A stretch of DNA of 41,142 nt. It comes from an uncultured Actinomycetes bacterium. GTDB lineage: Bacteria > Actinomycetota > Actinomycetes > Nanopelagicales > Nanopelagicaceae. The notes beneath the pieces are model-generated. The model saw only the letters and a program-made list of their open reading frames with translations. It did no database searches and was not told where the DNA came from. The translations under genes were made by a program, and so were the position numbers. Below, piece after piece: positions 1-14,342 of this stretch. The stretch is from assembly GCA_903846075.1 (NCBI GenBank), contig CAIMZW010000133.1:1-41142 (forward strand), in the 5' to 3' direction. The stretch's first letter is position 1. Every line of letters begins with the position of its first letter.

Positions 1-204
1 ACCGACTCCAACACCCACACCCACACCGACTCCAACACCCACACCCACACCGACTCCAACACCCACACCGACTCCGGTATACATTCCACCTGTTATTTAT
101 GTTCCCCCGGTGGATTTGCCGACCCCAACACCAACCCCGACACCAACCCCAACTCCAACCCCAACTCCAACCCCAACTCCAACCCCAACTCCAACCCCGA
201 CTGT
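1..204 (+). repeat. Pro-Thr-coding tandem repeats
   Basis: Two low-complexity tracts encode a Pro-Thr linker. The first (about 2-75) is built from a 24-bp unit beginning CCGACTCCAACACCCACACC, present about three times in imperfect form. The second (about 118-201) is built mostly from a 12-bp unit CCAACCCCAACT. Both units are multiples of three, so copy-number changes would alter linker length without breaking the frame. Confidence 0.85.
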
Positions 205-1597
205 TTCTCAATTAGTGGGTACGGGACTTGTGAGATCTCAAATCATCTCTGGCACTCCGGGACTTCTAAACGTTCTAGATAAAACATCGTTTGCAAATGG
301 TTTCGCTCAGTTCTACGGAATTGGGCTCGGATACAAAGATGCCTTTGTCTACCAGGGGAGTAATTTCACCCTGAGCTTCCACGTTAGTTCTGCAAATGGA
401 TCTGCACTGACAAATCAAGCGGTGACCCTTCAAGCAAATAAAGGTTACGGAGGGAGTACAGCAACATTTACTTCTGGTGTTTATACGATTCCAAATACAG
501 CTGGAGCAAATGATGGTGCAGATATAGGTGGAGTCACAGATAGTGCTGGCAATGTCAGTTTTTCAATAAAAGATACTTCGTTATCGGCAGAGCCAAGTGG
601 GACGTCGCTCACCTCGCTGGACCAATTGACTCAGCAAAATGGTGGAATATATGGTCAATTCGCATTGAAAATCGGCAACATTGATCAACTTCATCAGTCA
701 ATGGATTTGGTGGACATTCACGTTATTGCAACAAGTTCTCCTACGCCAACTCCCTCTCCTACCCCTTCACCCTCTACCAATGATGTCCTTTTGTGGTCAG
801 CCGATTTCAATGATCCGGCTGGAACAAAACCTGATTCTCAGGTCTGGACACCATTGATCGGTAATGGTTTGGCGCAACTTGGGTTTAGTAATTACGGAAC
901 GGGAGAGATTGAACTCAATAGCGCCGATGCGGCAGTTGCCGATGGCAATGGAAATTTAGTTATCTCGACCTCAAAAGCGAATGGCGTGTGGACGAGTTCG
1001 CGTATTTGGACTCAAGGCAAGCTCTCTTTCCAATATGGGAAAATTGAAGCGCGAATAAAGATGCCCGCTGGCTCCTTTAACTGGCCGGCATTTTGGATGT
1101 TAGGTTCTAGTTATCAACCAACAAATAGACTTTTTGGTTCAGTTCCCTGGCCTAACAGCGGTGAGATTGATATTGCAGAAATATTGCAAGGAAACCGAGT
1201 AAACCAAAGCACGTTACACGCTAATAATGTTGGCGGAAATGGCGATTGGAATGGTGGTGGTGGCTTGACTGCTGCTTCTCCAACAATCGATTTTTCAGCC
1301 GACTTTCACACCTATGGAATGCTTTGGGGTCCGAACCTATTCACATTTACCGTGGATGGTGTGGAATTTGTCAAGGACACCTACGTGAATGGACAGATTT
1401 TTCAGTCGATAAATCGTGGTCCTGCATCTTTTACAAACATTGTCGGTGACTGGCCGTTCAACAACAAATTCTTCTTGATCTTAGACAATGCCATTCAAGC
1501 GGGAACGGTTGCACCAGATGGAAGTGCTTCCCAGATGTCGATTGATTGGATTCATTACTCCACCTACAACGGTTTAGGGACATTAAGTCACAGCTAG
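1..1597 (+). CDS. Secreted GH16 beta-glucanase with Pro-Thr linker and accessory domain (5' partial)
   Basis: The reading frame is open back to the first base of the window (codons starting at position 2 read Pro-Thr repeats), so the real start lies upstream; the GTG at 110 is only an internal codon. Order: (Pro-Thr)n linker to about 204, broken once by a Val/Ile/Tyr/Pro-rich segment near 77-117; an unrecognised beta-rich domain at about 205-735, also found in the proteins at 1654-2592 and 6954-8330; a short Ser-Pro-Thr linker (737-779); then a GH16 module from about 781. The GH16 active-site motif GEIDIAE is intact, with the catalytic Glu codons at 1163 and 1178 and the Asp at 1169. GH16 enzymes of this motif type hydrolyse beta-1,3 or beta-1,3-1,4 glucans. 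Sequence around the active site lacks the TLHGP stretch of the other GH16 proteins here, so specificity may differ. The protein is presumably exported, but its signal peptide is outside the window. Confidence 0.9.
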
Positions 1598-1608
1598 ACA
1601 TACATAGA

Positions 1609-1644
1609 GAAACCCCCGAAGGCTAGAAGCCAATCGGGGGTTTC
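1609..1644. terminator. Bidirectional rho-independent-type terminator
   Basis: GAAACCCCCGA at 1609-1619 pairs with TCGGGGGTTTC at 1634-1644, and an inner GGCT/AGCC pair sits in the loop. It lies between the converging GH16 gene (stop 1597) and the minus-strand gene ending at 1654, so it can serve both. Confidence 0.8.
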
Positions 1645-1653
1645 TAGAATTAG

Positions 1654-2592
1654 TTACTTTGTTACAGTCACTTTCTTTGAAATAGAGAAAGAGTTGTACT
1701 TATCGTCGCCGGAATTGGTTCCGATGACATTGCATGAACCAACCTTCTTGGCCGTTACCTTTGTTCCTTTCAGAGAACAATTTTTGGAGTCGATCAACCA
1801 AATGATCGCAAGGCCATTAGTTGTTTTCGCGGGAAGTGAAAGCGTCTTACCAACTTTGATCTTGGTGGCAAAACTGGCAACCATTTGGTCTTTGAGAACA
1901 ACCGGAGCTGGTGTTGCAGTTGGTGTTGGGGTAGGTGTTGCAGTTGGTGTTGGTTTGGCTGTTGGAGTAGGTGTTGGAGCCACTGCGCTTGGAAGATCAC
2001 TAGCAACGTCAAAAGTGGCAATATCGGTATCTTCTGCCTTATCTCCAACTCCAGGCAAAACTGGCTTCATGGTTCCGTAAAGTCTGGCCGGGGCGATCTT
2101 GTCACGATTCATAGTGAGAGAAGTCGGTACATTTTCCAGTCCCGAAGTACTGGTACTGACAATCGTGAATGTGACATCGCCTGAATCATTTGTTGTGCCA
2201 GTGAGCTGCGCTCCATAGCCATCGTTAACTTGGGCGGGGATTGCTTTTCCGTCAGCAGACCACAAGGCAGCAGAACCACTATATGGTGCGTTTACTTGAA
2301 GGAAAACTTGCTGGCTTTTTGCTGCGGTAGACCCATCAGTGGTGACGTGGTAGGTCAGGGTGAGGGTCGAACCCGCTTTAATATAGGTGTAAAAAGCTTT
2401 TGTACCCGGTGAGTAATACTGTGCAATATCGCTAGTCGAATCAACACTGTTTGCACTGGTGTAAACCGGGCTTGTCAATCTAATTGAAGGTAAGCCAGCT
2501 GCATGAGCAACCGAAACACCTGCGGAGACCGTGGTAAATGACAAAGCGAAAGAAAGAGCAACCTTTCCGGCTTTATTAAGGGATAACTTCAT
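1654..2592 (-). CDS. Secreted protein: unrecognised beta-rich domain, Pro-Thr linker, Ig-like C-terminal repeat
   Basis: 312 residues. A signal peptide (charged MKLSLNK, hydrophobic core, AHA-A cleavage region near residue 32) precedes a domain (about 34-200) that matches, by eye, domains in the GH16 protein at the window start and in the protein at 6954-8330. It opens with an I-x-L-T-SP motif and contains a TLTYHVT strand, a VFLQVNAPYSGSA strand and a D-SGDVTFTI strand. Next comes a Pro-Thr/Ala linker (about 205-232) and a C-terminal segment resembling the bacterial Ig-like repeat that carries a GSCNV and GDDKYN pattern. There is no catalytic motif. A GAAAGGAA ribosome-binding site lies just upstream of the ATG. 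It follows the GH16 gene at 2618-3535 by 25 bases on the same strand, so the two are probably co-transcribed. A glucan-binding or cell-surface role is inference from context. Confidence 0.8.
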   Translation of the reverse strand: MKLSLNKAGKVALSFALSFTTVSAGVSVAHAAGLPSIRLTSPVYTSANSVDSTSDIAQYYSPGTKAFYTYIKAGSTLTLTYHVTTDGSTAAKSQQVFLQVNAPYSGSAALWSADGKAIPAQVNDGYGAQLTGTTNDSGDVTFTIVSTSTSGLENVPTSLTMNRDKIAPARLYGTMKPVLPGVGDKAEDTDIATFDVASDLPSAVAPTPTPTAKPTPTATPTPTPTATPAPVVLKDQMVASFATKIKVGKTLSLPAKTTNGLAIIWLIDSKNCSLKGTKVTAKKVGSCNVIGTNSGDDKYNSFSISKKVTVTK

Positions 2593-2617
2593 TGTGTTCC
2601 TTTCGATTTGTTTGAAT

Positions 2618-3535
2618 TTAGTGCTTCAAGACTGTTCCGACTCCATTTACTGAATAGAAACGAACATAATCAATTGCTAGCTGGGCCTTATTAAGCGTTG
2701 GGTCGATGTCACCGGCAAATTCTCCGCCCATGGCAAGATTGAGAATGAGGAAAAATTCATGGTTGAAGACCCATCGACCCGGTGCTACATCTTTCGGAGT
2801 CGCTGAGAAATACAGATTGTCATCGACATAAAAATCGATCTGATTCTTTTTCCATTCAATTGCGTAGGTGTGGAAAGCGTCGGCAAGGGAGGTTTGATTG
2901 TTAAAAGTCGATCCATATCCACCGCCAGAGCCAGCAACAAAGCTTGGGCCGTGGAGAGTTCCGAATGCAGCCTCGGGCATGAATCCTCTACTTTCGAGCA
3001 CATCAATTTCGCCACACTCAGGCCATGGATTTCCCTGCAGTAAATCAGCACCTAACATCCAAAAAGCTGGCCAAGTTCCGGCTCCTGCTGGGATTTTCAT
3101 CCGTGCTTCCAATCGGCCGTAGAGAAAGCCGATCTTGTTGGAGGTTTTTATCTTGGCGCTCGTGAATTGGCACTCATTGCAAATATTGAGTAATTGATCA
3201 GTTCCGGCAACAGTGCCAACCGCTGTGCCAGATTGATCGGAGATTCGATTTGCCGTGAATAAGAGATGACCCTTGCCATCGGTAGAAATGTTTGCCGGCT
3301 TTTGGGTGTAATACTCAAGTTCTGAATTTCCCCAGCCATAACTATTTCCGATGTCATACCCCCAAACTTTCGGATTGGGAAGTGCCCCTTTTTTACCTGC
3401 AAATTCGTCGGACCAAAGTAATTTCAAGACCTTAGGGCCAGAAGCTGCTTGGGCAGGGGTAACGCCGGCGAATGAAGCAAGTGTGGCACCGCAGACGAAA
3501 AGAATCGTGGTGCGCTTCAACAACCTCAGTTTCAT
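2618..3535 (-). CDS. Secreted GH16 endo-beta-glucanase (laminarinase-type)
   Basis: 305 residues. Signal peptide (MKLRLLKRT, hydrophobic stretch, AQA-A near residue 30), then a single GH16 module with no linker. Family features visible: LLWSDEF at the start, [22 protein letters not shown], the catalytic motif GEIDVLE with E176, D178 and E181, and HEFFLILNLAMGG near the end. GH16 enzymes with this E-x-D-x-x-E spacing are typically laminarinases or related beta-1,3(4)-glucanases acting by a retaining mechanism. A Cys just before the motif and an extra C-x-x-C segment (ICNEC) may form a disulfide. The C-terminus ends in NGVGTVLKH, a tail shared with the other GH16 proteins here. It is divergent from the sugar ABC transporter genes, with a LacI-type operator between them. 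Confidence 0.92.
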   Translation of the reverse strand: MKLRLLKRTTILFVCGATLASFAGVTPAQAASGPKVLKLLWSDEFAGKKGALPNPKVWGYDIGNSYGWGNSELEYYTQKPANISTDGKGHLLFTANRISDQSGTAVGTVAGTDQLLNICNECQFTSAKIKTSNKIGFLYGRLEARMKIPAGAGTWPAFWMLGADLLQGNPWPECGEIDVLESRGFMPEAAFGTLHGPSFVAGSGGGYGSTFNNQTSLADAFHTYAIEWKKNQIDFYVDDNLYFSATPKDVAPGRWVFNHEFFLILNLAMGGEFAGDIDPTLNKAQLAIDYVRFYSVNGVGTVLKH

Positions 3536-3561
3536 AGGTTCCTCTTTTTGATTATCACGCT

Positions 3562-3567
3562 TTTATA
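3562..3567 (-). promoter_or_regulatory. Possible -10 element for the 2618-3535 GH16 gene
   Basis: Read on the minus strand the bases give TATAAA, about 30 bases upstream of the start codon at 3535. A clear -35 box was not identified, so this is tentative. Confidence 0.35.
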
Positions 3568-3630
3568 ACATTTCGTAAATGATTGCTGATGGTATTGCGC
3601 ACTTCAGAATCATACAGTTAACTACCCTAC

Positions 3631-3648
3631 TATGAAACCGCTTTCATA
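3631..3648. promoter_or_regulatory. LacI-family operator, site 1
   Basis: TATGAAACCGCTTTCATA is an inverted repeat (TATGAAA / TTTCATA around a CCGC centre) typical of LacI-family operators. It lies in the divergent region between the GH16 gene (start 3535, minus) and the binding-protein gene (start 3702, plus). Its reverse complement matches the site at 10654-10671 at 17 of 18 positions. The most likely cognate regulator is the LacI protein at 12165-13202; that assignment is inference. Confidence 0.75.
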
Positions 3649-3701
3649 GGAAGCATTTGGCAGATTTTTATCGCGGTCCAGACTTAATAGAGGAGTTTGA
3701 A

Positions 3702-5045
3702 ATGCTAAAAAAATGGCGAGTCAAAGGAACCGTTGCTGCTCTTGCGGCGGTAATCGTTGGAGTGGGAACCTTAACAACTCCTGCCAAAGCTGCTGATCCA
3801 GTCACCATTACTATTTGGACTTTTGGTGATGTAATCCAGCGCCAATTGGTCCAGGAATACAAAATTCTTCATCCAGAAGTGACTTTGCAAATTAAGAAAT
3901 CTGACCTTGACCCCCTGAATGGGTCCAACATGGTAACTGCATGTACCTCGAGCACTGGGCCTGACATTGTTGCGGTAGAAGTTTCGTATTCTGGTTACTG
4001 GCGCTCATATCCAAAGTGCTTCCAAGACCTAAAGCAAATGCAAACTTCTGACGCAAATGCCGCAGCCGGAATTCCTGCCGGTCAATCCGCCTCTGATATC
4101 CAGAAGAATTACCTTCCATGGCGTTGGGATCAAGGAGTCGCCTACAACGGCGCTGTGATTGGTCTCCCCACCGATGTCGGCGGTCTAGAGGTTGCTTACC
4201 GCACTGATCTCTTTAAAAAGGCTGGTCTACCAACTGATCGCAAGGCTGTTGCCAAATTATGGCCAACGTGGGATGCGTTCATTGCAACTGGTCAGAAGTA
4301 CCTGGCTAAATTGACCAAAGCACAAAAGAAAAATGGCATGGGCTTTATCGACAACACTGGCACCATCTATGCCGCGATCATGAATCAAGGAACTGCTAAG
4401 TACTATCAAAATGATGGAACTGAAACCGGCAAGTTGATTTATGACACCAACCCTCAAGTTAAGTTGGGTTGGAATACCACCATCAAGGCAACCCAATCTG
4501 GTATCGGTACTCGCATCGGGCAGTACACCTCTGACTGGAACATCGGAATGAGCAAGGGAACCTTTGCCACGATCTTGGCCCCAGCTTGGATGATGGATTA
4601 CATCAAGGCTCAGGCACCTGATACTGCTGGAAAGTGGGATATTGCTGATATGCCTGGCGGCGGCGGAAATCAAGGCGGAACTCAATTAACGATTCCTTCT
4701 TATTCCAAGAACAAGCAAGCGGCATATGACTTTTTAACTTGGTACTTGGCCCCAGCTCAAGAGTTAAAGGTATTCAAGACCTACGGCCTCTTCCCTGCAG
4801 CCTCAGTTCTTTACAAGGATCCAGCTTTGACCGGATTCACCGATCCATTCTTCAGCAATGCTCCGGTCGGCCAGATCTACGCCAGCGGCGTTGTGAAGTT
4901 AAAGCCAATTTTCGAGGGCAAGCTGGAGCGTGCCGTAGACCAAGCCATTGGTGCGGGTCTGGGGCGGGTTGCCGCGAAAAAGATGACGCCGGATCAGTCA
5001 TGGGCGCAGGTACTTTCCGACCTAAAGAAAGTCGTGAACAACTAG
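3702..5045 (+). CDS. Sugar ABC transporter substrate-binding protein
   Basis: 447 residues from the ATG at 3702, chosen because GAGGAG stands seven bases upstream and a normal signal peptide follows (MLKKWRVKG, hydrophobic core, AKA-A); the longer frame from 3657 has no such support. After cleavage the protein begins DPVTITIWTFGD, typical of family 1 extracellular solute-binding proteins of the maltose/oligosaccharide type. Conserved landmarks include a central PAWMMDYI segment, GGTQLTIPSYSKNKQAAYDFLTW, and a C-terminal helix with DQSWAQVLSDL. It is the first gene of an operon with two permeases at 5076 and 6068 and the secreted protein at 6954. Given four GH16 genes and a GH1 around it, the expected ligand is a beta-glucan oligosaccharide such as a laminari-oligosaccharide; this is inferred from context. 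Confidence 0.92.
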   Translation: MLKKWRVKGTVAALAAVIVGVGTLTTPAKAADPVTITIWTFGDVIQRQLVQEYKILHPEVTLQIKKSDLDPLNGSNMVTACTSSTGPDIVAVEVSYSGYWRSYPKCFQDLKQMQTSDANAAAGIPAGQSASDIQKNYLPWRWDQGVAYNGAVIGLPTDVGGLEVAYRTDLFKKAGLPTDRKAVAKLWPTWDAFIATGQKYLAKLTKAQKKNGMGFIDNTGTIYAAIMNQGTAKYYQNDGTETGKLIYDTNPQVKLGWNTTIKATQSGIGTRIGQYTSDWNIGMSKGTFATILAPAWMMDYIKAQAPDTAGKWDIADMPGGGGNQGGTQLTIPSYSKNKQAAYDFLTWYLAPAQELKVFKTYGLFPAASVLYKDPALTGFTDPFFSNAPVGQIYASGVVKLKPIFEGKLERAVDQAIGAGLGRVAAKKMTPDQSWAQVLSDLKKVVNN

Positions 5046-5075
5046 TCCGGGGGGATAGTTGTTTCCTGATAATCA

Positions 5076-6071
5076 ATGAGTCAATTAAAAGTGAAGGCGG
5101 GGCCGTCAAAAGCCCCCCTTTCACCGTGGAAAAGCGCAAAGCCAGAGAAGGCTAAGAAGGCAAAGCCGGCAAAGGTAATTTCAGGAGTCGCCTCGCTCAA
5201 TGGCCGCTGGGGATTCTTGTTCGTTGCCCCATTCTTCTTTATGTTCGTCATCTTCGGCCTGGCTCCAGTTATTTACTCGGTCTACATCTCTTTCTTCCAT
5301 TGGGATCCACTTGGCGGCTCAACCTTTACCGGTCTGAGAAATTTCAATCTTCTCCTTCACGACAGTGACCTTTGGCTCGCCATCCGAAATACCTTTTCAA
5401 TCTGGGCTCTATCTACTTTTCCTCAAATGATTATGGCGATTGGCTTAGCCTCAATTTTGCGAAATAGCCGACTAAAAGCCAAATCATTTTGGCGAACTAT
5501 CTTGTTGGTTCCGAATATCACCTCCGTCATCGCAATTACCATTGTTTTCAGCCAATTATTTGGTCGAGATTTCGGAATAGTCAACGACATTCTTGGCTTC
5601 TTCGGTGTGCACCATCACATCGATTTTATTGAAGGTGTAATCCCTAGCCACATCGCGATTGCATCCATGATCACCTGGCGCTGGATCGGTTACAACACAT
5701 TAATTTTCTTGGCGTCAATGTTGGCAATTCCGGGGGAGCTTTACGAATCCGCCAGTGTTGATGGCGCTTCTAAGCGGCAACAATTCTGGTACGTCACATT
5801 ACCTTCTTTAAAGAACACCATTACTTTCGTTCTGATTGTCGGAACAATTGGTGGCTTGCAAGTATTTGCTGAGCCACAACAACTCGCAGCTGATGGCGGA
5901 TCTAGTAAGCAATTCTTAACCTTAACTTTATTCCTCTATAACCAGGCATTTGTGAATAACAAATATGGATATGCCGCAGCCATCGGAATCATTATTACTT
6001 TCATTGTTCTCATTATTTCGTTGGTGAACTTCGTAATCACCCGTAAGATTTCAAGTGACGGTAGCCGATGA
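5076..6071 (+). CDS. Sugar ABC transporter permease, MalF/UgpA type
   Basis: 331 residues, first of the two transmembrane subunits of the importer. A Lys/Pro/Ala-rich cytoplasmic N-terminus (about 40 residues) precedes about six membrane segments beginning GFLFVAPFFFMFVIFGLAP. The cytoplasmic EAA loop, which docks onto the ATPase, is visible as ELYESASVDGASKRQQFWYVTLP in the second half. It follows the binding-protein gene by 30 bases and overlaps the next permease by an ATGA. The ribosome-binding site is weak. No ATPase gene occurs in the cluster, so the importer probably uses a shared ATPase encoded elsewhere, as is common for this family. Confidence 0.92.
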   Translation: MSQLKVKAGPSKAPLSPWKSAKPEKAKKAKPAKVISGVASLNGRWGFLFVAPFFFMFVIFGLAPVIYSVYISFFHWDPLGGSTFTGLRNFNLLLHDSDLWLAIRNTFSIWALSTFPQMIMAIGLASILRNSRLKAKSFWRTILLVPNITSVIAITIVFSQLFGRDFGIVNDILGFFGVHHHIDFIEGVIPSHIAIASMITWRWIGYNTLIFLASMLAIPGELYESASVDGASKRQQFWYVTLPSLKNTITFVLIVGTIGGLQVFAEPQQLAADGGSSKQFLTLTLFLYNQAFVNNKYGYAAAIGIIITFIVLIISLVNFVITRKISSDGSR

Positions 6072-6913
6072 AAACTAGAACTCCAAAATGGCGTAGAACC
6101 TCACCGGTTCATTATCTCTTGCTTGCCACGATCACCTTCCTTTCGATCTTCCCGTTCTATTGGATGTTTGTTGTCTCTTCCAATACCAATGCTGAAATTT
6201 CAAAATCTCCTCCTTCACTTATTCCAGGAGGACGTTTCTTCATCGTAGCCAAGAAAGTGTTAAGTGCACAGGGCGTTTACTTCAATAGCGCCTTGTTGAA
6301 CACTTTTATAGTAGGAACATCAATCGCCGTGGCGCAGGTACTTCTTTCCGCGATTGCTGGTTTTGCATTTGCAAAATTAAATTTCAAGGGACGAAAATTC
6401 TTTATTCTTTTCGTCGTTGGAACCATGATGTTACCAAGCCAGTTAGGAATTATTCCGCTCTTCATGCTGGTCAAGAACTTACATATGATCGATTCGTTAT
6501 TTGGTCTTATTGTGCCGGCACTAGTCACAGCTTTTGGCGTTTTTTGGATGCGTCAAATCATTGACGCTCAGATTCCAAATGAACTGTTGGAAGCCGCCAG
6601 TATCGATGGGGCATCTGTCCCACGAATCTTCTGGAGCATTGTGATGCCCATCGTTAGGCAAAGCGGTTTTGTTTTGGGCCTGTTTGCTTTCCTTGCTGCA
6701 TGGAACGACTATCTCTGGCCCACGATTGTTCTACAAAGTCCAAAGCACTTCACACTCCAGGTTGCGTTAACCCAACTCAAGCCAATGTATGGCTTGGATT
6801 ATGGATTGCAAATGGGTGGCGCATTTCTCGCGACTGCTCCGTTGCTAATTCTCTTTATTTTCGTCGGTCGCAAACTTGTGAGTGGCGTGATGGATGGCGC
6901 AGTAAAAGGTTAA
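6068..6913 (+). CDS. Sugar ABC transporter permease, MalG/UgpE type
   Basis: 281 residues, second transmembrane subunit. It starts at the ATG in an ATGA overlap with the preceding permease, indicating translational coupling. The first membrane segment (YLLLATITFLSIFPFYWMF) is followed by a periplasmic loop and the usual binding-protein-dependent permease core. The EAA loop reads NELLEAASIDGASVPRIFWSIVMP. The C-terminus is short and basic. It should form the heterodimeric channel with the 5076-6071 product. Confidence 0.92.
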   Translation: MKTRTPKWRRTSPVHYLLLATITFLSIFPFYWMFVVSSNTNAEISKSPPSLIPGGRFFIVAKKVLSAQGVYFNSALLNTFIVGTSIAVAQVLLSAIAGFAFAKLNFKGRKFFILFVVGTMMLPSQLGIIPLFMLVKNLHMIDSLFGLIVPALVTAFGVFWMRQIIDAQIPNELLEAASIDGASVPRIFWSIVMPIVRQSGFVLGLFAFLAAWNDYLWPTIVLQSPKHFTLQVALTQLKPMYGLDYGLQMGGAFLATAPLLILFIFVGRKLVSGVMDGAVKG

Positions 6914-6953
6914 GAAATTTCACGCACGAACCACTAGGAAAGGTAATCCAAGA

Positions 6954-8330
6954 ATGATGAATAACAGAAAAATCGGAGCTGCTTTTGCTGCAGTTGTTAC
7001 AGCAATTGGAGTCTCCTCTGTCGTCATTGCTCCCGCTCAGGCAGCCGGTACTCCACCAACAGATGCTCATATCGTGCTTTTGAGTCCAGTTTTGGATGCT
7101 ACTAACACCAGTGAAGCAAAGAAGAACCAAGCGATGGCTGATGGTTGGGTCGCAAATGGTTGGTTCGGCGACGGACTTCTCTATCAACGCACCTTTGCTC
7201 CCGTTGGTTCGAATATTAACTTGACCTATCACGTCACTGATAAAGATGGAAAGCCTCTGATTAATCAGGACGTGAAATTACGTGTCAATAAGGGCTACAG
7301 CACTTCAACTTCAATCCTTAAAGTCGACTACGCAAAGACCAAAGGTGTTGATAAGCCACCACTGGACCAAGCTGATGTGATTCATAAAACCGATGCTTTT
7401 GGAAATGTAACTTTCGCGGTTCAAGATCTCGATGGCGCTCCCTTTGGTGAACCACAGCCTGATTCATTCACAAGTGCTCCTAAAATCAGCGACGATGGTC
7501 TGAATGATCTACATTCACAGATGTTGCCTGAAGTTGCGGGAGAGAAACCAGATCACTCGGCAATTACTGAATTTCACTATTACATTCCCAATGCTGCCGA
7601 CGTCTATTCCTTAAACCATCCCACAATTAAATTAGTCTCACCAGCACTAGATGCAACTAATTCGGCATCCGGAGATGGGCTTCGTCAGGCCTTCGCACCT
7701 GCTGGTTCCAAGTTTGTGGTCGTATACAAAGTGACCGACGATGCTGGAATGCCTGTTCGAAATACCGTGGTGAAGCTTCACCTCAATAAGGCAGGAAGTA
7801 ATTCCAATGCAAGTATTACTGATGGCAAGACGGGAACCGATGCCAAGAAAGGTGACGTCGTTCTGCAATCTATGACAGATGCATTTGGGTTTGCTGCATT
7901 CAATTTGCAAGACACCGATAAGAAAGGTGAAGCCGCTCCAACTAACTTCACAATTCCTGCGCCTTCAGCTGGGGCTGTATTCAGTCAAGTAGTTCCTGAA
8001 ATTGCTGGTATTGGCGTCGACAATGCTGATGTCACCCAATTCCATTTCTATGGAACCTCAACATCTGCATCGCCTTCTACAAATCCAATCTCTATCTCTG
8101 CTTCAAGCACAAAATCGGGCACCAAATCAAAGCCGGTTTATACGCTTACTCTAGGAATTGCTAATGCCACTGGTAAATCTGCTGCCATTTCAATTTCGGG
8201 CTTGAAGGTTATGAAAGCCAATGTCACTATCGCTAACCAAGGATTTTCTTACACCGTTACTCCAGGAGTAAAGAAAATTACTGTGGTTATTGACGGTAAG
8301 AAGTATTCCACTTCAATAAACATCAAATAA
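6954..8330 (+). CDS. Secreted protein with two copies of an unrecognised domain
   Basis: 458 residues, starting at the first of two adjacent ATG codons after GGAAAGG. Signal peptide (MMNNRKIG, hydrophobic, AQA-A near residue 31). Two tandem copies of the same domain follow: copy 1 about 37-212 and copy 2 about 224-367. Both open with an (I/V)-x-L-x-SP-x-LDATN motif, carry a VTD-(K/D)-x-G-x-P strand and a V-K-L-(R/H)-(V/L)-NK strand, and end PE-(V/I)-AG followed by EFHYY or QFHFY. A Ser/Thr-rich link leads to a final Ig-like C-terminal domain (about 375-458). No catalytic motif is visible. It is 40 bases downstream of the second permease and so belongs to the importer operon. A role in holding or presenting glucan at the cell surface is plausible but unproven. 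Confidence 0.8.
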   Translation: MMNNRKIGAAFAAVVTAIGVSSVVIAPAQAAGTPPTDAHIVLLSPVLDATNTSEAKKNQAMADGWVANGWFGDGLLYQRTFAPVGSNINLTYHVTDKDGKPLINQDVKLRVNKGYSTSTSILKVDYAKTKGVDKPPLDQADVIHKTDAFGNVTFAVQDLDGAPFGEPQPDSFTSAPKISDDGLNDLHSQMLPEVAGEKPDHSAITEFHYYIPNAADVYSLNHPTIKLVSPALDATNSASGDGLRQAFAPAGSKFVVVYKVTDDAGMPVRNTVVKLHLNKAGSNSNASITDGKTGTDAKKGDVVLQSMTDAFGFAAFNLQDTDKKGEAAPTNFTIPAPSAGAVFSQVVPEIAGIGVDNADVTQFHFYGTSTSASPSTNPISISASSTKSGTKSKPVYTLTLGIANATGKSAAISISGLKVMKANVTIANQGFSYTVTPGVKKITVVIDGKKYSTSINIK

Positions 8331-8375: not shown

Positions 8376-8411
8376 TAGAAATGATCGATGAGAGAAATTA
8401 TTGGAGGGATC

Positions 8412-9791
8412 ATGCGCAAGAGGTTGATTGGTCTTTTTTTAACACTCTCAATTGTTTTTACCTTAGCCTCACCTCTTAGTTTTGCGACGACGACTCCTTC
8501 AGTTTTAAAAGCTCCGACCATTTCAATTTCCAGCGATGGAATGATCGTCACCGCTTTGCCAGCTAAATGGAGCGCTTCAGTAAAGAGTGTCATTAGTTGG
8601 TTTATTAACGGAAAGAGTGTTTCAGGGAAAGCTCCTTCGCTTCATTTACCTAGTAAATTCACTGGCGGCACCATCAAATACATAGAGAATGTAAAAACAC
8701 CGGCCGGCAAGACCATTTCGGCTATATCCAACACCTTGCAGATTTCCCCCATTTCTCTCCGTGGTGACGTGCAAATTAACTTCTCAGACCAGAGCAATTC
8801 AACTCTGTCAGCGTCACTACCAATCGTTTTGTCTGGCAATCCACTTATTACTTATCAATGGTTTCGTGGTCCTTTTGAAATCCCAGGTGCCACATCAAGT
8901 ACATACTCGATCACTTCTGCCGACGAAAAAACAGATGTCAGTCTTGAAGTGACCTACTCAGCGAAAGGCAGCGCCTCTATCAAGAAGGACTCCCCACCTC
9001 TTACTATCGCAGCAAAGCCCAGAAACTACTCTTTGATTTGGTCAGATGAATTTAACGCTGCAACCGGAAGCCCAGTGGATCCCAATATTTGGGTGCCGCA
9101 AAATGGTGATGGAGTCGCCTTCGATAACAAGGGCTGGGGCAATAGAGAGCGTGAATGGTATGTGGATTCCCAATCATCAATAGATAGCACAGGGGCGCTC
9201 GTTACTACGGCTACTCGTACCGGGGCAAATGCTTATAACTGTTATTACAAGGCACCATGTGAATGGATTAGTTCAAAATTCGTGACAAAGGGCAAAGTCG
9301 GCTTTAAATATGGGCGAATTGAGGCGCGAATAAAAGGTCCAGTCGGAAATGGGAGTTGGGCAGCATTTTGGATGTTAGGTGCGAATATCGATACACGTCC
9401 ATGGCCAGGTTCTGGCGAGATTGACGTTACGGAACTACTTGGAAGAACTCCAAAAACTGTTTATGGGACTTTGCATGGACCACTTTCCGGAGGTGGCGGC
9501 CGCGGTGGAACTATCGATTTAAGTGGTGGATTCGCCGATGGTTATCACACGTATGCCGTGGATTGGTTGCCGGATCAAATAACTTGGTACGTTGACGGAA
9601 CCGCTTATGCCACCATAAATAAGACTGACAATGACTGGGTTTTTGATCATGAGTTCTACCTCATCATTAATCTTGCCATGGGAGGGATTTTTGGCGGAGA
9701 TGTCGATCCAAATTTAACCACCGCGACTCAATCAGTTGACTATGTCCGAGTTTTCTCCATCAATGGTATTGGTGAAGTAATCAAGCACTAA
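8412..9791 (+). CDS. Secreted GH16 endo-beta-glucanase with N-terminal Ig-like region
   Basis: 459 residues from the ATG at 8412, preferred because GGAGGG precedes it and the signal peptide (MRKRLIGLFLTLSIVF) then starts normally; an in-frame ATG at 8388 is the alternative. Residues about 30-115 and 116-205 look like two Ig-like domains of the kind that bind carbohydrate or act as spacers (the second has a YQWFRG strand and a TYSITSADE strand). The GH16 module runs from about 210 (SLIWSDEFNA) to the end. The catalytic motif GEIDVTE has E336, D338 and E341, followed by GTLHGP. The C-terminus ends in the shared tail NGIGEVIKH. Its stop overlaps that of the minus-strand gene at 9788-10576 by four bases. 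Confidence 0.92.
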   Translation: MRKRLIGLFLTLSIVFTLASPLSFATTTPSVLKAPTISISSDGMIVTALPAKWSASVKSVISWFINGKSVSGKAPSLHLPSKFTGGTIKYIENVKTPAGKTISAISNTLQISPISLRGDVQINFSDQSNSTLSASLPIVLSGNPLITYQWFRGPFEIPGATSSTYSITSADEKTDVSLEVTYSAKGSASIKKDSPPLTIAAKPRNYSLIWSDEFNAATGSPVDPNIWVPQNGDGVAFDNKGWGNREREWYVDSQSSIDSTGALVTTATRTGANAYNCYYKAPCEWISSKFVTKGKVGFKYGRIEARIKGPVGNGSWAAFWMLGANIDTRPWPGSGEIDVTELLGRTPKTVYGTLHGPLSGGGGRGGTIDLSGGFADGYHTYAVDWLPDQITWYVDGTAYATINKTDNDWVFDHEFYLIINLAMGGIFGGDVDPNLTTATQSVDYVRVFSINGIGEVIKH

Positions 9792-10576
9792 TGTCGAATT
9801 AATTCACCAATTCCATCAACGTTGTAAAAGCGCACCCAATCGATCACTAGTTCAGCCTCATTCAGCTCTGGATCGACCTCTCCGCCAAACCAACCTCCGA
9901 TAGCTTGGTTTATTAACAGATAGAACTCATTGTTAAAAGGCCATTCTTTTCCTTCGAGTTCTGAGTCCGCCCGATTAATCGAGTTATAGACCTCGCCATC
10001 AAAGGTCCAATCAATCTGATCTTCTCTCCAGCTAATTCCATAGACATGAAATTCTTCTGATAGGTCGACTGGATTCTCGTAAGTTTTAGTCAAGCCTTGT
10101 TCCCCAAAATAAAGAGGGCCATGAATAGTGCCACGAACTGTTTTTGGCGCGCTGCCTACACCCTCTTGGAGGTCGATTTCGCCACAGAAAGGCCAATTGG
10201 TGCCATGATTTATTGAGGCTCCTAACATCCAAATAGCCGGCCAAGTGCCGATACCGAAGGGCATTTTCGCGCGAACTTCAAGAGAACCGTATTTAAATCC
10301 AACTTTTTGGCTGGTGTGAATCTTTCCACTAGTCCAGAGAGCGGGGCCGTAATAGCAAGAGTGGGCACTATCTCTACCTTCGCGCTTAGCAGTGATAGTT
10401 AATGAACCATTAACCTTCATCGACTCTTCGGTGTAGTACTGAAGCTCGTTGTTACCCCATCCAATCAGACCATGAGAGGAACCGTCACCGATATCCGGTG
10501 TCCATGTTGTTTGCGAGAGAGCGCTACCTTCGAATTCCTCTGACCAGACAAGAGTTCGATTGACAGTACTAGACAT
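9788..10576 (-). CDS. GH16 beta-glucanase without signal peptide (predicted intracellular)
   Basis: 262 residues, essentially one GH16 module. The start MSSTVNRTLVWSEEF leads straight into the family fold with no hydrophobic export signal, preceded by a GGGAGAAG ribosome-binding site. Key features: GWGNNELQYYT, GTWPAIWMLGA, the catalytic motif GEIDLQE with E133, D135 and E138, GTIHGP, and the tail DGIGELIRH. Retaining GH16 chemistry is expected; with no export signal it probably acts on imported oligosaccharides with the GH1 enzyme next door. It is divergent from the GH1 gene at 10782, with a LacI-type operator between them. Confidence 0.9.
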   Translation of the reverse strand: MSSTVNRTLVWSEEFEGSALSQTTWTPDIGDGSSHGLIGWGNNELQYYTEESMKVNGSLTITAKREGRDSAHSCYYGPALWTSGKIHTSQKVGFKYGSLEVRAKMPFGIGTWPAIWMLGASINHGTNWPFCGEIDLQEGVGSAPKTVRGTIHGPLYFGEQGLTKTYENPVDLSEEFHVYGISWREDQIDWTFDGEVYNSINRADSELEGKEWPFNNEFYLLINQAIGGWFGGEVDPELNEAELVIDWVRFYNVDGIGELIRH

Positions 10577-10653: not shown

Positions 10654-10671
10654 TGTGAAAGCGGTTTCATA
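10654..10671. promoter_or_regulatory. LacI-family operator, site 2
   Basis: TGTGAAAGCGGTTTCATA is a near-perfect inverted repeat in the divergent region between the intracellular GH16 gene and the GH1 gene. It equals the reverse complement of site 1 (3631-3648) except at the second position. The gene for a likely cognate LacI-type regulator ends next to the GH1 gene. Confidence 0.75.
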
Positions 10672-10781
10672 CTCTGATTCAACTCGAAGGAAATATTTCG
10701 GTCAAGTGGCTCTATGCTACACAGACCAGAGATGGTTCTATTGAGGATTTGTCAGGCTCACTGGATAGGAAAATTATTATT

Positions 10782-12164
10782 ATGAGTTCATTTCCATCAG
10801 ACTTCGTTTGGGGTGCCGCAACATCTAGCTACCAGATTGAAGGAGCGACGGAGGTGGATGGTCGAGGAGTCAGCATCTGGGATACCTTCAGTAGAACTCC
10901 TGGAACCATTGTTAATGGTGATACCGGAGATGTTGGTTGCGATCATTACAACAGATTTCCTGAAGACATTTCGATTATGCGCGCGCTCGGTATTAAATCT
11001 TATAGATTTTCTATTTCCTGGCCTCGCCTTTTTCCTCAAGGAGACGATGTCCGAGAAGAACGTGGTTTCGACTTTTACAATCGCCTTATAGATGCGCTAC
11101 TTGATGCTGAAATAACTCCAGTTATAACTTTGTATCACTGGGACTTACCACAACCACTAGAGGATGTCGGTGGTTGGGCTAACCGCAGCATCGTGGATCG
11201 CTTCAAGAGTTATGCCCAAGCGTGCGCGGAAGCTTTTGGGGATCGAGTTTCAATTTGGACAACTCTCAATGAGCCATGGTGTACCGCTTGGTTAGGCTAT
11301 TCATCTGGCGTGCACGCACCCGGAAAGAAAGATTATCGACTTGCTATTGCCGCTTCTCACCATACGGCTCTTGCTCATGCTGAAGGCGTGAGGGCAATTA
11401 AAAGTATTCTTCCTAAGGCCGCCGTTGGGCTAACGGTAAACATGACTAATTTTAGAAATCTAAATCCAGAAGACATTGAAGTCGAGGCGCTAAAAGGTCT
11501 TTTAGACGCCAATCTCAACAGATGGTGGATTGACGCATATCTTAAGGGTGAATATCCGCAGAACCTCATCCATCATTATGGTGAGGATTTGTTACGGGTA
11601 ATACATTCGGGCGATATGGAACTCTTGAAATGTGAAACGGATTTTCTGGGCATCAACTATTACAGCGATAGCTTTCTTCAAACTGCGAAACCTGGAAGCA
11701 AAACATTTCTAGAGGAGGGATTTCTGCCATTTCCTTATCGCGCAGATGGAACTCCTCCCAGCGAATACGCTGGTTCGTTAACTGCAATGGGATGGGTCGT
11801 GACTCCCGAAGGACTTGGTGAATTGATGAAAAGGATCCACCAAGATTGGCCAGAAATCAAAGAGATTCTTGTTACCGAAAATGGTGCCGCTTATGATGAC
11901 CAAGTTGAGGCAAACGGAGATGTTCGAGACGAAGCGCGTGCCCAATATTTCAAGGAGCATCTAAAATCTTTGCAAGCTGCGGTTGCAAGCGGAGTTCCCG
12001 TTAAAGGCTATTTTGCTTGGTCTTTGTTAGATAATTTTGAGTGGGCTGAGGGTTATGACAAACGATTTGGGCTGGTCTATATCGATCGCAAGACTTTAGA
12101 TCGAAAAGTCAAACTAAGCGGAGAAGTTTATGCTGAGGTTATAAGGCACAATAAAGTTCTATAG
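10782..12164 (+). CDS. GH1 beta-glucosidase
   Basis: 460 residues from the ATG at 10782, which places the family-typical opening FPSDFVWGAATSSYQIEG right after the start; a TTG at 10749 would add eleven residues. Both GH1 catalytic motifs are intact: TLNEPW with the acid/base E164, and VTENGA with the nucleophile E366. Other landmarks are YRFSISWPRLFP, YHWDLPQPLE and the C-terminal GYFAWSLLDNFEWAEGY. There is no signal peptide, so the enzyme is cytoplasmic and should release glucose from beta-linked oligosaccharides. Length is normal for bacterial GH1. Its stop codon abuts that of the convergent LacI gene with no spacer. Confidence 0.95.
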   Translation: MSSFPSDFVWGAATSSYQIEGATEVDGRGVSIWDTFSRTPGTIVNGDTGDVGCDHYNRFPEDISIMRALGIKSYRFSISWPRLFPQGDDVREERGFDFYNRLIDALLDAEITPVITLYHWDLPQPLEDVGGWANRSIVDRFKSYAQACAEAFGDRVSIWTTLNEPWCTAWLGYSSGVHAPGKKDYRLAIAASHHTALAHAEGVRAIKSILPKAAVGLTVNMTNFRNLNPEDIEVEALKGLLDANLNRWWIDAYLKGEYPQNLIHHYGEDLLRVIHSGDMELLKCETDFLGINYYSDSFLQTAKPGSKTFLEEGFLPFPYRADGTPPSEYAGSLTAMGWVVTPEGLGELMKRIHQDWPEIKEILVTENGAAYDDQVEANGDVRDEARAQYFKEHLKSLQAAVASGVPVKGYFAWSLLDNFEWAEGYDKRFGLVYIDRKTLDRKVKLSGEVYAEVIRHNKVL

Positions 12165-13202
12165 TTATTTCTTACTTGAATCGCGCACAACCAATTTAAC
12201 ACTCAATGTTTTGCGCTCTACTTTTTTTCCTTCAAGAATTGAAACGAGAGAGCGAGCGACCTCAGCACCTAATTCTCGGGTCGGTTGATAAATGCTTGAC
12301 AGACTAGGTAAGTTTCTTGATGCTAAGGGTGAATCGTCGAAGCCCACGACTTTGACATCCTCTGGAACTCGAATTCCATTTTGCAACAAAACATTTATAG
12401 CCCCAACTGCGGTCAAGTCATTTCCAGCAAAAATTCCATCAAACTTAATTTTCTTGGTTAGTACATTCCGGGTTAACTCTTCACCCATTGCCATGGAGTA
12501 GTCGCCATGTAATACGTGTGAATCGGCAATCTTTAAGCCAGCCTCCGACATCGCATGTTCAAATCCATTAAAACGATCGCGCCCCGATTGAAGTTTTAAA
12601 TCACCAGTGATTGTGATGATGTTTTTACATCCTTGCTTAATCAAATGCTTAGTGGCTAGATACCCACCTTCGACGTTATCTACATCGACGTAAGGATACT
12701 TGTCGGTTCCGCCTAAATCTCCACCGAAGACGACCGCCATAGTTGGCGGAATTAATTTTTCAAAACTACGTACCGAACGGTGCCAACTGAAAATGGCGAG
12801 CCCATCAACTTGGGCAATTCGGAGCGAAGCGAAGAGTGAATCTTCCGAACCGGTTTTTGGACGAATAAGAAGAACAGGTTGCATTCCCGCATCGGTGATC
12901 GCAGAAGTAAAGCCTTGAACTACGAAACCCCAGAATGGATTGAGGAAGAACTCCTCACTAGATTCTTCTAAGACTAAGGCCACAAGTCCACTGCGACCCC
13001 CGGCAAGTCGCCGAGCAGTCATATTTGGTGTGAAATTATGTTTTTTAATTGCCTTCCGAACAGCTCGCTCGGTATCAGGAGAGACTCTTGCGGTGCCATT
13101 CATGACTCGAGAGACGGTGGCACGACTTACTCCAGCGGTCTGCGCAACTAAGTCGATGGTAGCGACAGTATTTGCTACTTGCCCAACTTTTTTAGCCGCC
13201 AT
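12165..13202 (-). CDS. LacI-family transcriptional regulator of the glucan locus
   Basis: 345 residues. N-terminal helix-turn-helix at about 15-37 (IDLVAQTAGVSRATVSRVMNG) and hinge region TARRLAGGRSGLVALV, followed by a periplasmic-binding-protein-like effector domain to the end (VDGLAIFS, GCKNIITITGD, FDGIFAGNDLTAVGAI, VVGFDDSPLA). Such proteins usually repress sugar-use genes until a sugar ligand binds. The two matching operators at 3631 and 10654 in the flanking cluster are its likely targets. The gene upstream on the same strand (13254-14342) ends 51 bases before its start, with no terminator visible between. Confidence 0.92.
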   Translation of the reverse strand: MAAKKVGQVANTVATIDLVAQTAGVSRATVSRVMNGTARVSPDTERAVRKAIKKHNFTPNMTARRLAGGRSGLVALVLEESSEEFFLNPFWGFVVQGFTSAITDAGMQPVLLIRPKTGSEDSLFASLRIAQVDGLAIFSWHRSVRSFEKLIPPTMAVVFGGDLGGTDKYPYVDVDNVEGGYLATKHLIKQGCKNIITITGDLKLQSGRDRFNGFEHAMSEAGLKIADSHVLHGDYSMAMGEELTRNVLTKKIKFDGIFAGNDLTAVGAINVLLQNGIRVPEDVKVVGFDDSPLASRNLPSLSSIYQPTRELGAEVARSLVSILEGKKVERKTLSVKLVVRDSSKK

Positions 13203-13253: not shown

Positions 13254-14342
13254 TTACTTCAGCGAAAGTAAGACTCTTTGGTTAGCATCGGTAACACCTT
13301 CGTCGATCATGAGGAACCCGTTAGAGATATCTTGACCTTTAGGAATCTGCACCATAAGACCACCAGTAGCAGTCTGCCCAGCGGCAATACCCGAATCATT
13401 GATGCTTGGAAGTGAAGCACTTACTGAGACAAATTCCAGTTGATTGCCTACTAGAAGGCGAAAATTAATTTCGGGAATGGGGCTCGACGATCGATTGTTC
13501 ACCGTCACGGTAAATTCAACATATCGAGTGTCTGCAGTCGGGTCAGGGATGCTGCCGCCACTTCCGTCATCGATACAAGTGTCCATTAATATGTCGGAAG
13601 TGCAAACACGTTTGCTGGCATCGTTGTCATATTTAACCAAGGTAATGTCGACCAAGTCACCATTGTAGGTAGCACCAAGATTTCTTCGGAAATATGTAGT
13701 GACGCCATCGAGAGCAACATCTGGTGTTGCGATAACAGGGCTCGCAATTTGAATCGTGGAAGAAAGATCAGTTGCAGCTGCGAAATTGTCATCTCCTGTT
13801 TGCGTGGCGGAAATCGTGCACGCCCCTGTTTTGACTGGCATCAAAATTTCACCTTGGACTAAACAGATGTCGGGGGTTTTAGAGATGGTAGTCACGGCTA
13901 AGCCCGAGTCCGATTTAATGGTGGACAAATCCAAAGTGTTGGTTATCGGTAAAGTTGTAGTTGCAACGGCGGCAATGGTTTGAGATTGCTTGGTTTTGCT
14001 GGGAGTCGGTGTTGGCGTGGCAGTTTCCGATGGAGTCGGTGTTGGCGTAACGCTCTCTGAAGGTGATGGCTCTGGAGTCGAAACAGGCGAGCTGGTCGGG
14101 GTCGGTGTTGGTGTTACTGCAGGAGTCGTCTTGGCTTTAGGAGCGGGAGCAACTTTCCATTTCAAAACTGTCCCGCTTTTTACGCAGATTTCCTTTTTTC
14201 CGGCATAGGTCGTTGTGGCGTTGAGTTTTGGACATTTTGTTCCTGGCTTGTGGGCGGTCGTGGCTGACGCCGATACCGGGTGGAGAAAAGCGAGAACTAA
14301 GAAAAGCGCACTTGCCGAGATTAGCTTGCGACCCATTTCCAC
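13254..14342 (-). CDS. Secreted Pro-Thr-rich protein with Ig-like repeat and C-terminal beta domain
   Basis: 362 residues; ATG codons at 14342 and 14336 are both possible starts. Signal peptide, then a short module with two Cys (GTKCPKLNATTTYAGKKEIC ... GTVLKWKV) that I recall from secreted proteins of related Actinobacteria. A Pro-Thr/Ser linker (about 75-118) follows, then an Ig-like repeat with the GACTISATQTGDDNF pattern (about 120-200), then a C-terminal domain (about 215-362) resembling DUF4352-type extracellular Ig-like domains (YVEFTVTVNNRSSSPI, G-I-AAGQTATGGLMVQIP). It has no enzymatic motif. It lies upstream of the LacI gene in the same direction. Function unknown. Confidence 0.75.
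   Translation of the reverse strand: MEMGRKLISASALFLVLAFLHPVSASATTAHKPGTKCPKLNATTTYAGKKEICVKSGTVLKWKVAPAPKAKTTPAVTPTPTPTSSPVSTPEPSPSESVTPTPTPSETATPTPTPSKTKQSQTIAAVATTTLPITNTLDLSTIKSDSGLAVTTISKTPDICLVQGEILMPVKTGACTISATQTGDDNFAAATDLSSTIQIASPVIATPDVALDGVTTYFRRNLGATYNGDLVDITLVKYDNDASKRVCTSDILMDTCIDDGSGGSIPDPTADTRYVEFTVTVNNRSSSPIPEINFRLLVGNQLEFVSVSASLPSINDSGIAAGQTATGGLMVQIPKGQDISNGFLMIDEGVTDANQRVLLSLK

What the first reader, a model, noticed from the sequence alone, without database searches (positions are those of the whole stretch)
205..8055. An unrecognised domain repeated four times in three secreted proteins of the glucan locus
Seen directly: about 150-175-residue segments at 205-735 (+), 1992-2493 (-), 7062-7590 (+) and 7623-8055 (+) share the same order of motifs. 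Three open with an I-x-L-x-SP motif. All carry a hydrophobic strand with a GS-(x)3-L-x-(Y/F)-x-V core, a V-x-L-x-x-N strand followed by Ser-rich residues, a T-D-x-x-G-x-(V/A)-x-F turn, and a closing segment with D-x-x-x-(F/I). Two of the three carriers have no enzyme domain, and one is fused to GH16. I infer an accessory domain, possibly binding beta-glucan or building a surface scaffold.
Basis: partly seen in the sequence, partly recalled or inferred. Interest (0 to 1): 0.7.

Follow-up and report, generated by a model that had tools for sequence, protein, structure and literature searches.

The report
Ig-like domain of glucan-eating loci
A sugar-eating actinobacterium carries four copies of one antibody-like (Ig-fold) protein module next to its beta-glucan-cutting enzymes; the module is almost always found with those enzymes in relatives and probably holds glucan at the cell surface, although binding has not been tested.

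Summary
The repeat is real. Four copies of one ~145-176-residue module lie in three secreted proteins: a GH16 fusion (A), a one-copy protein (B) and a two-copy protein (C). Every pair of copies is similar far beyond shuffles. Copy A must be read from 206/212, not 205.

It is not wholly unrecognised. Pfam BIg21 (an Ig-like family) matches the central ~75 residues of all four, over its cut-off in protein C. AlphaFold gives a confident Ig/macroglobulin-like sandwich with extra N- and C-terminal parts. No known carbohydrate-binding module was hit.

The new part is the context. In 201 genomes of the family, all 16 with strong hits also have GH16 (18 genomes have GH16). Of 40 carrier proteins, 35 lie within 2 kb of GH16 or are fused to it, and 15 follow the last sugar-importer permease directly. 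A second actinobacterial class, with a different importer, pairs the module with GH16 and GH1 too. In the window's genome a LacI-type operator occurs only at this locus's two divergent promoters.

Best explanation: a surface beta-glucan-binding (or enzyme-positioning) module, analogous to Bacteroides SGBPs, in a Gram-positive utilisation locus. Binding is inferred, not shown. A plain structural spacer remains possible.

The parts
212..736 (+). Copy A of the Ig-like module, inside the GH16 fusion protein (ORF 2-1597, cut by the contig start)
   Evidence: AlphaFold pLDDT 95.7, pTM 0.91
2..1597 (+). Carrier A: PT-rich linker, module, GH16 (EIDIAE at residue 388); 5' end missing from the contig
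   Evidence: complete homologue L012:5219-7246 with signal peptide
1999..2493 (-). Copy B of the module
1654..2592 (-). Carrier B: signal peptide, one module, PT linker, small C-terminal Ig-like region; starts 25 bp after the GH16 gene stop
2618..3535 (-). Secreted GH16 glucanase (EIDVLE), first gene of the minus-strand operon with B
3633..3646 (.). LacI-type operator TGAAACCGCTTTCA between the divergent GH16-B and importer-C-GH16 operons
3657..5045 (+). ABC importer solute-binding protein (likely start near 3702)
5076..6071 (+). ABC importer permease 1
6068..6913 (+). ABC importer permease 2
6954..8330 (+). Carrier C: signal peptide, two modules, 90-residue tail; 40 bp after the permease stop
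7062..7589 (+). Copy C1 of the module
   Evidence: AlphaFold pLDDT 88.8, pTM 0.85
7620..8054 (+). Copy C2 of the module (lacks about 25 residues of the N-terminal segment present in orthologues)
8388..9791 (+). Secreted GH16 glucanase with N-terminal Ig-like region (EIDVTE)
9788..10576 (-). GH16 without signal peptide (EIDLQE)
10656..10669 (.). Second and only other copy of the operator in the genome, between divergent GH16 and GH1 genes
10749..12164 (+). GH1 beta-glucosidase family gene
12165..13202 (-). LacI-family regulator, candidate reader of the operator

Best explanation
The repeated segment is a secreted Ig/macroglobulin-like beta-sandwich module of a beta-glucan (probably laminarin-type beta-1,3-glucan) utilisation locus. 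It sits on one GH16 glucanase and, in one to several copies, on non-enzymatic proteins made together with the glucan importer. Shown: homology, fold class, fusion to GH16, operon position, shared operator, and co-occurrence with GH16 in two classes. Inferred: the module binds beta-glucan chains. It would keep the substrate and the GH16 enzyme at the cell surface, so that released oligosaccharides are caught by the importer's binding protein and cut by GH1 inside the cell. That is the work done by surface glycan-binding proteins (SGBPs) in Bacteroides, achieved here with an ABC importer.
For: Co-occurrence: profile A1 hits 16 of 201 genomes of the family strongly, and all 16 hold GH16, which is in only 18 of 201 (Fisher p about 1e-21, not corrected for relatedness). 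Neighbourhood: of 40 carrier proteins in the fetched loci, 35 have GH16 within 2 kb or are fused to it (7 fusions), and 15 start directly after the last importer permease. Second class: in one genus of another actinobacterial class the module sits just upstream of, and in line with, GH1 in five genomes (gaps about 130-210 bp), with GH16 in the same region in four and, where the flank could be read, a different, oligopeptide-type importer; a sixth genome has a module-GH16 fusion. Regulation: operator TGAAASCGSTTTCA occurs only twice in 1.82 Mb, at the locus's two divergent promoters, and the same or nearly the same site recurs upstream of the binding-protein gene in 14 of 17 related loci, two of the other three being contig-cut. 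Conservation: Tyr/Trp and Asn/Asp positions outside the generic Ig motif are kept in both classes (Y34, Y35, Y45, W/Y56, N76, Y79, N122, D167 in C1 numbering). All four window GH16s carry ExDxxE, the laminarinase-type active-site motif (reading of the motif from general knowledge).
Against: No hit to any carbohydrate-binding module family in Pfam, and none among the top 50 PDB fold matches. Best fold matches are complement MG4 and Big_1-type domains, which serve mostly as structural or protein-binding modules. No ligand data exist. Some carriers lie far from any GH16 (L006, L059). Some conserved aromatics may be core residues: no coordinates were available to test exposure.
Confidence: 0.5

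Rival explanations
1. The module is a structural spacer or surface-scaffold domain. It lifts GH16 and other proteins away from the envelope, like Big-domain stalks of adhesins or S-layer Ig domains, and does not bind glucan.
For: Core matches BIg21 and Big_1. Fold matches include the S-layer protein SbsC and macroglobulin domains. It occurs in tandem, with PT linkers in carriers A and B. Some carriers lie outside glucan loci.
Against: A generic spacer should not be almost confined to GH16-bearing genomes and GH16 neighbourhoods or keep so many polar and aromatic positions outside the Ig motif across two classes.
Confidence: 0.27
2. The module is a protein-docking domain that gathers the GH16 enzymes and the importer's binding protein into a surface complex, in the manner of a cohesin scaffold.
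For: Non-enzymatic two-copy protein encoded between importer and GH16; a cohesin is among the weak fold matches of copy C1 (rank 32).
Against: No dockerin-like partner was found in the window's GH16, GH1 or binding-protein genes. The GH16 fusion makes docking unnecessary for that enzyme. The cohesin match is weak (TM 0.33).
Confidence: 0.13
3. The module attaches proteins to the cell's own envelope (peptidoglycan or glycan coat) and has no role in substrate capture.
For: The proteins have signal peptides but no LPxTG or transmembrane end, so some retention device is needed.
Against: Relatives' B-type carriers bear a separate family-wide C-terminal tail that is the better candidate anchor. An envelope anchor should not track GH16.
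Confidence: 0.07

Closest known systems
Pfam BIg21 (PF05688) / Big_1 (PF02369) bacterial Ig-like domains
   Same: Central ~75 residues (GS-x3-L-x-Y-x-V-T-D-x-x-G ... TD-x-x-G-x-V-x-F) align to BIg21 positions 1-82 in the copies of alignment A1; Ig-like sandwich predicted.
   Different: About 45 N-terminal and 45 C-terminal residues with their own conserved Y, E, D and H positions are not covered; single window copies score 16.7-22.2 bits, under the 27.4 cut-off; tied to glucan loci.
Macroglobulin domain MG4 (complement C5, PDB 6rpt)
   Same: Best domain-sized fold match (probability 1.00, TM 0.67 by target length, 0.46 by query length).
   Different: 13% identity, protein-binding role in complement, no extra N-terminal segment.
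Surface glycan-binding proteins (SGBP-B) of Bacteroides beta-1,3-glucan loci (PMC7157763)
   Same: Non-enzymatic, encoded in the same locus as importer and GH16.
   Different: Works with SusC/SusD and an outer membrane; here an ABC importer in an actinobacterium; no sequence relation was tested; binding not shown.
Gram-positive polysaccharide utilisation loci (gpPUL), e.g. Blautia producta mixed-linkage glucan locus (PMC10318527)
   Same: GH16, ABC importer and transcriptional regulator in one locus.
   Different: That paper says gpPULs lack an SGBP and that CBMs on the enzyme (four CBM4 in BpGH16MLG) take over its role; this locus has two separate non-enzymatic module proteins besides the fused one.

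Membership tests
BIg21 (PF05688) | Score over the curated cut-off (27.4 bits) | tested here: inconclusive
   Met for whole protein C (34.2) and protein D of contig C148 (31.9); not met for proteins A (15.9) and B (15.2) nor for single window copies (22.2, 19.8, 17.2, 16.7)
BIg21 (PF05688) | Coverage of the whole 109-position model | tested here: not met
   Matches stop at positions 79-86; the module's C-terminal strands diverge
BIg21 / Ig-like superfamily | Ig-like beta-sandwich fold | tested here: met
   AlphaFold models of A and C1 share eight main strands in the same order; PDB matches are Ig-like/MG sandwiches
Big_1 (PF02369) | Score over cut-off (34.9 bits) | tested here: not met
   At most 19.2 bits for the window copies
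Known carbohydrate-binding module family | Match to a CBM family in Pfam or to a CBM structure | tested here: not met
   No CBM among matches of 80 copies or in the top 50 PDB matches
Known carbohydrate-binding module family | Measured glycan binding | not testable with these tools
   Needs protein
Gram-positive polysaccharide utilisation locus (gpPUL) | Polysaccharide-degrading enzyme, carbohydrate transport system and regulator together | tested here: met
   GH16 x4, GH1, SBP, two permeases, LacI regulator; shared operator
Bacteroides SGBP | Partnered with SusC/SusD at an outer membrane | tested here: not met
   Importer genes are ABC type; only the working analogy is proposed
Cohesin-dockerin scaffold | Dockerin on partner enzymes | tested here: not met
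   No dockerin in the window's GH16, GH1 or SBP proteins

The most novel reading that the evidence does not exclude
Actinobacteria evolved their own class of free-standing, multi-copy surface beta-glucan-binding proteins, built from a new Ig-like binding module and coupled to an ABC importer: a Gram-positive counterpart of the Bacteroides SGBP, in loci described as lacking one.
Probability: 0.4. Interest if true: 0.62.

Novelty: new variant of a known kind. Interest (0 to 1): 0.46.

Why it matters
If the module binds glucan, it is a new carbohydrate-binding module family and explains how small planktonic Gram-positive cells could hold on to a soluble polymer while cutting it outside and importing the pieces. 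It would also be a sequence marker for beta-glucan use: in the 201-genome sample it tracks GH16 almost perfectly. The question can be tested directly with one or two recombinant proteins.

Tried and rejected
Sequence search of the PDB with profiles A1 and A2 gave only chance hits. NCBIfam gave nothing useful for the modules. Phage and plasmid collections had no match. The viral contig scan could not run because alignment A3 is too divergent. The genome-contig scan with protein C found only one close relative. A phylum-wide sample of 396 genomes found the module outside the family in only one strong case (G430), so it is rare rather than a general actinobacterial Ig domain. Weak hits in G135, G165 and G540 (E 1e-4 to 9e-3) lack GH16 and were treated as generic Ig similarity. 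Co-occurrence within the G430 genus alone is not significant (4 of 4 against 21 of 41, p 0.06); adjacency to GH1 carries that argument. Literature searches found no description of this module or locus type.

Full report
Observation. The three carrier ORFs and four segments exist. With the frame of copy A corrected (206/212 instead of 205), every pair of copies scores far beyond 500 shuffles. The listed motifs are mostly correct; exceptions are noted in the observation check. The window is an entire contig of a 1.82 Mb, 149-contig assembly, and carrier A is cut inside its PT repeat. A complete homologue in a same-genus genome has a signal peptide, a short Cys-pair segment, a PT linker, the module and GH16 (L012).

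More copies. The same genome has two further full copies and one partial on contig C148 (717-residue open frame) and a partial one on C98. Orthologues of protein C stand in the same order (importer, C, GH16) in a same-genus genome and in a public MAG, L010.

What the module is. Pfam BIg21 matches the middle of all 11 copies of alignment A1 and 57 of 80 copies of the widened alignment A3 at E up to 0.01. Protein C is over the curated cut-off (34.2 against 27.4 bits), as is protein D of C148 (31.9); single window copies are under it. The best domain-sized PDB match of A is the MG4 domain of complement C5 (probability 1.00, TM 0.67 by target, 0.46 by query). Viral matches include Big-1 proteins. 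No carbohydrate-binding module appears. So the core is a known fold and partly a known family, with about 90 flanking residues that no family covers.

Where it occurs. In 201 genomes of the same family, 18 have a match to the module and 16 of these are strong; GH16 is found in 18 genomes, including all 16. The two GH16 genomes without the module are G020 (a short fragment) and G083. In G083 the GH16 lies near a related importer but without the module. Genomes are related and incomplete, so the Fisher value (8e-22) overstates independence, but the module occurs in six genera. Of 40 carrier proteins, 35 lie within 2 kb of GH16 or are fused to it, 7 are fused, and 15 directly follow the second permease. 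The usual layout is GH16 and B-type protein on one side, then SBP-permease-permease-C-GH16 on the other, then GH16 and GH1.

Second class. In a phylum-wide sample of 396 genomes the only strong case outside the family is G430. Within its class, one genus carries the module. There it lies about 130-210 bp upstream of GH1, in line with it, in G430, G844, G701, G740 and G880. GH16 is within 0.5 kb in G844 and G701, about 10 kb away in G430 and G740, and on another contig in G880. In G430, G844 and G701 the cluster includes an oligopeptide-type ABC importer, and in G430 and G844 a LacI-type regulator as well. G896 has a module-GH16 fusion. The association thus holds with an unrelated type of importer.

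Regulation. A CG-centred palindrome, TGAAACCGCTTTCA, lies between the divergent operons GH16-B and SBP-permeases-C-GH16 (3633-3646). Its mirror lies between divergent GH16 and GH1 (10656-10669). These are the only two exact matches in the whole genome, with none for the reversed control pattern, against 0.05 expected in the window with one mismatch. The same or nearly the same site is upstream of the binding-protein gene in 14 of 17 loci; two of the other three are contig-cut. With a LacI-family gene at 12165-13202, proteins B and C are probably members of one glucan regulon. Co-transcription is inferred from gaps of 25 and 40 bp.

Mechanism. The four GH16s carry ExDxxE, which from general knowledge is the laminarinase-type site; no substrate was tested. 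Positions conserved in both classes beyond the Ig motif include two adjacent Tyr (34, 35), Tyr45, Trp/Tyr56, Asn76, Tyr79, Asn122 and Asp167 in C1 numbering. Conserved Tyr, Trp, Asn and Asp are what a sugar-binding face needs, but some may be structural. I judge beta-glucan binding most likely (0.5), plain spacer next (0.27), protein docking (0.13), envelope attachment (0.07).

Comparison with the known. Gram-positive loci of this kind are described as lacking an SGBP, its role being taken by CBMs on the enzyme (PMC10318527). Bacteroides beta-1,3-glucan loci have SGBP-A and SGBP-B next to GH16 (PMC7157763). The present locus has a module on an enzyme and also free-standing non-enzymatic proteins with one or two copies. 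It works like an SGBP system in the proposal; it is not a member of the SGBP family. The paper searches found no description of this locus type.

Limits. No binding data, no coordinates, MAG-based genomes without names. The organism is an actinobacterium with relatives of 1.0-2.2 Mb; a freshwater planktonic lineage is likely but was not established.

Noticed in passing
L050:12857-12952, L052:7363-7473, L051:325-420 and others (alignment A4); not on window protein B: A ~32-residue C-terminal tail (I-x-C-x-K-G-x4-6-V-x-G-x-x-P-x-C-P-x-G-Y-x-K-K) ends the B-type carriers of relatives. It occurs up to 20 times per genome in 12 of 16 genomes of the family and in none of 10 genomes of other families; in 17 of 17 readable cases the stop follows within 5 residues. 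It looks like a family-specific surface or sorting tag.
   Followed up: partly
window 13254-14342 (-), L012:5219 on, L088:10317 on, L096:7063-8268, L102:5772 on: A short N-terminal segment with two Cys (G-x-x-C-x-x-x-G-x5-Y-x-G-x-x-Y-x-C-x-K ... K-L-x-W) follows the signal peptide of several secreted proteins, including GH16s of two actinobacterial classes.
   Followed up: no
window 3633-3646 and 10656-10669: Perfectly locus-specific LacI-type operator: the only two exact matches in 1.82 Mb, both at divergent promoters of the glucan locus.
   Followed up: yes
window 7620-8054: Copy C2 lacks about 25 residues of the N-terminal segment that its orthologues in L010 and L011 keep; a shorter second copy also occurs in L057, L062, L064, L065 and L067.
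   Followed up: no
L050:5738-7063 against other C-type proteins: One C-type protein carries the CPxGYxKK tail in place of the usual 80-90-residue tail, suggesting that the two tails do the same job.
   Followed up: no
window 9788-10576 (-): The third GH16 has no signal peptide, so it may act inside the cell on imported oligosaccharides; its orthologues look the same.
   Followed up: no
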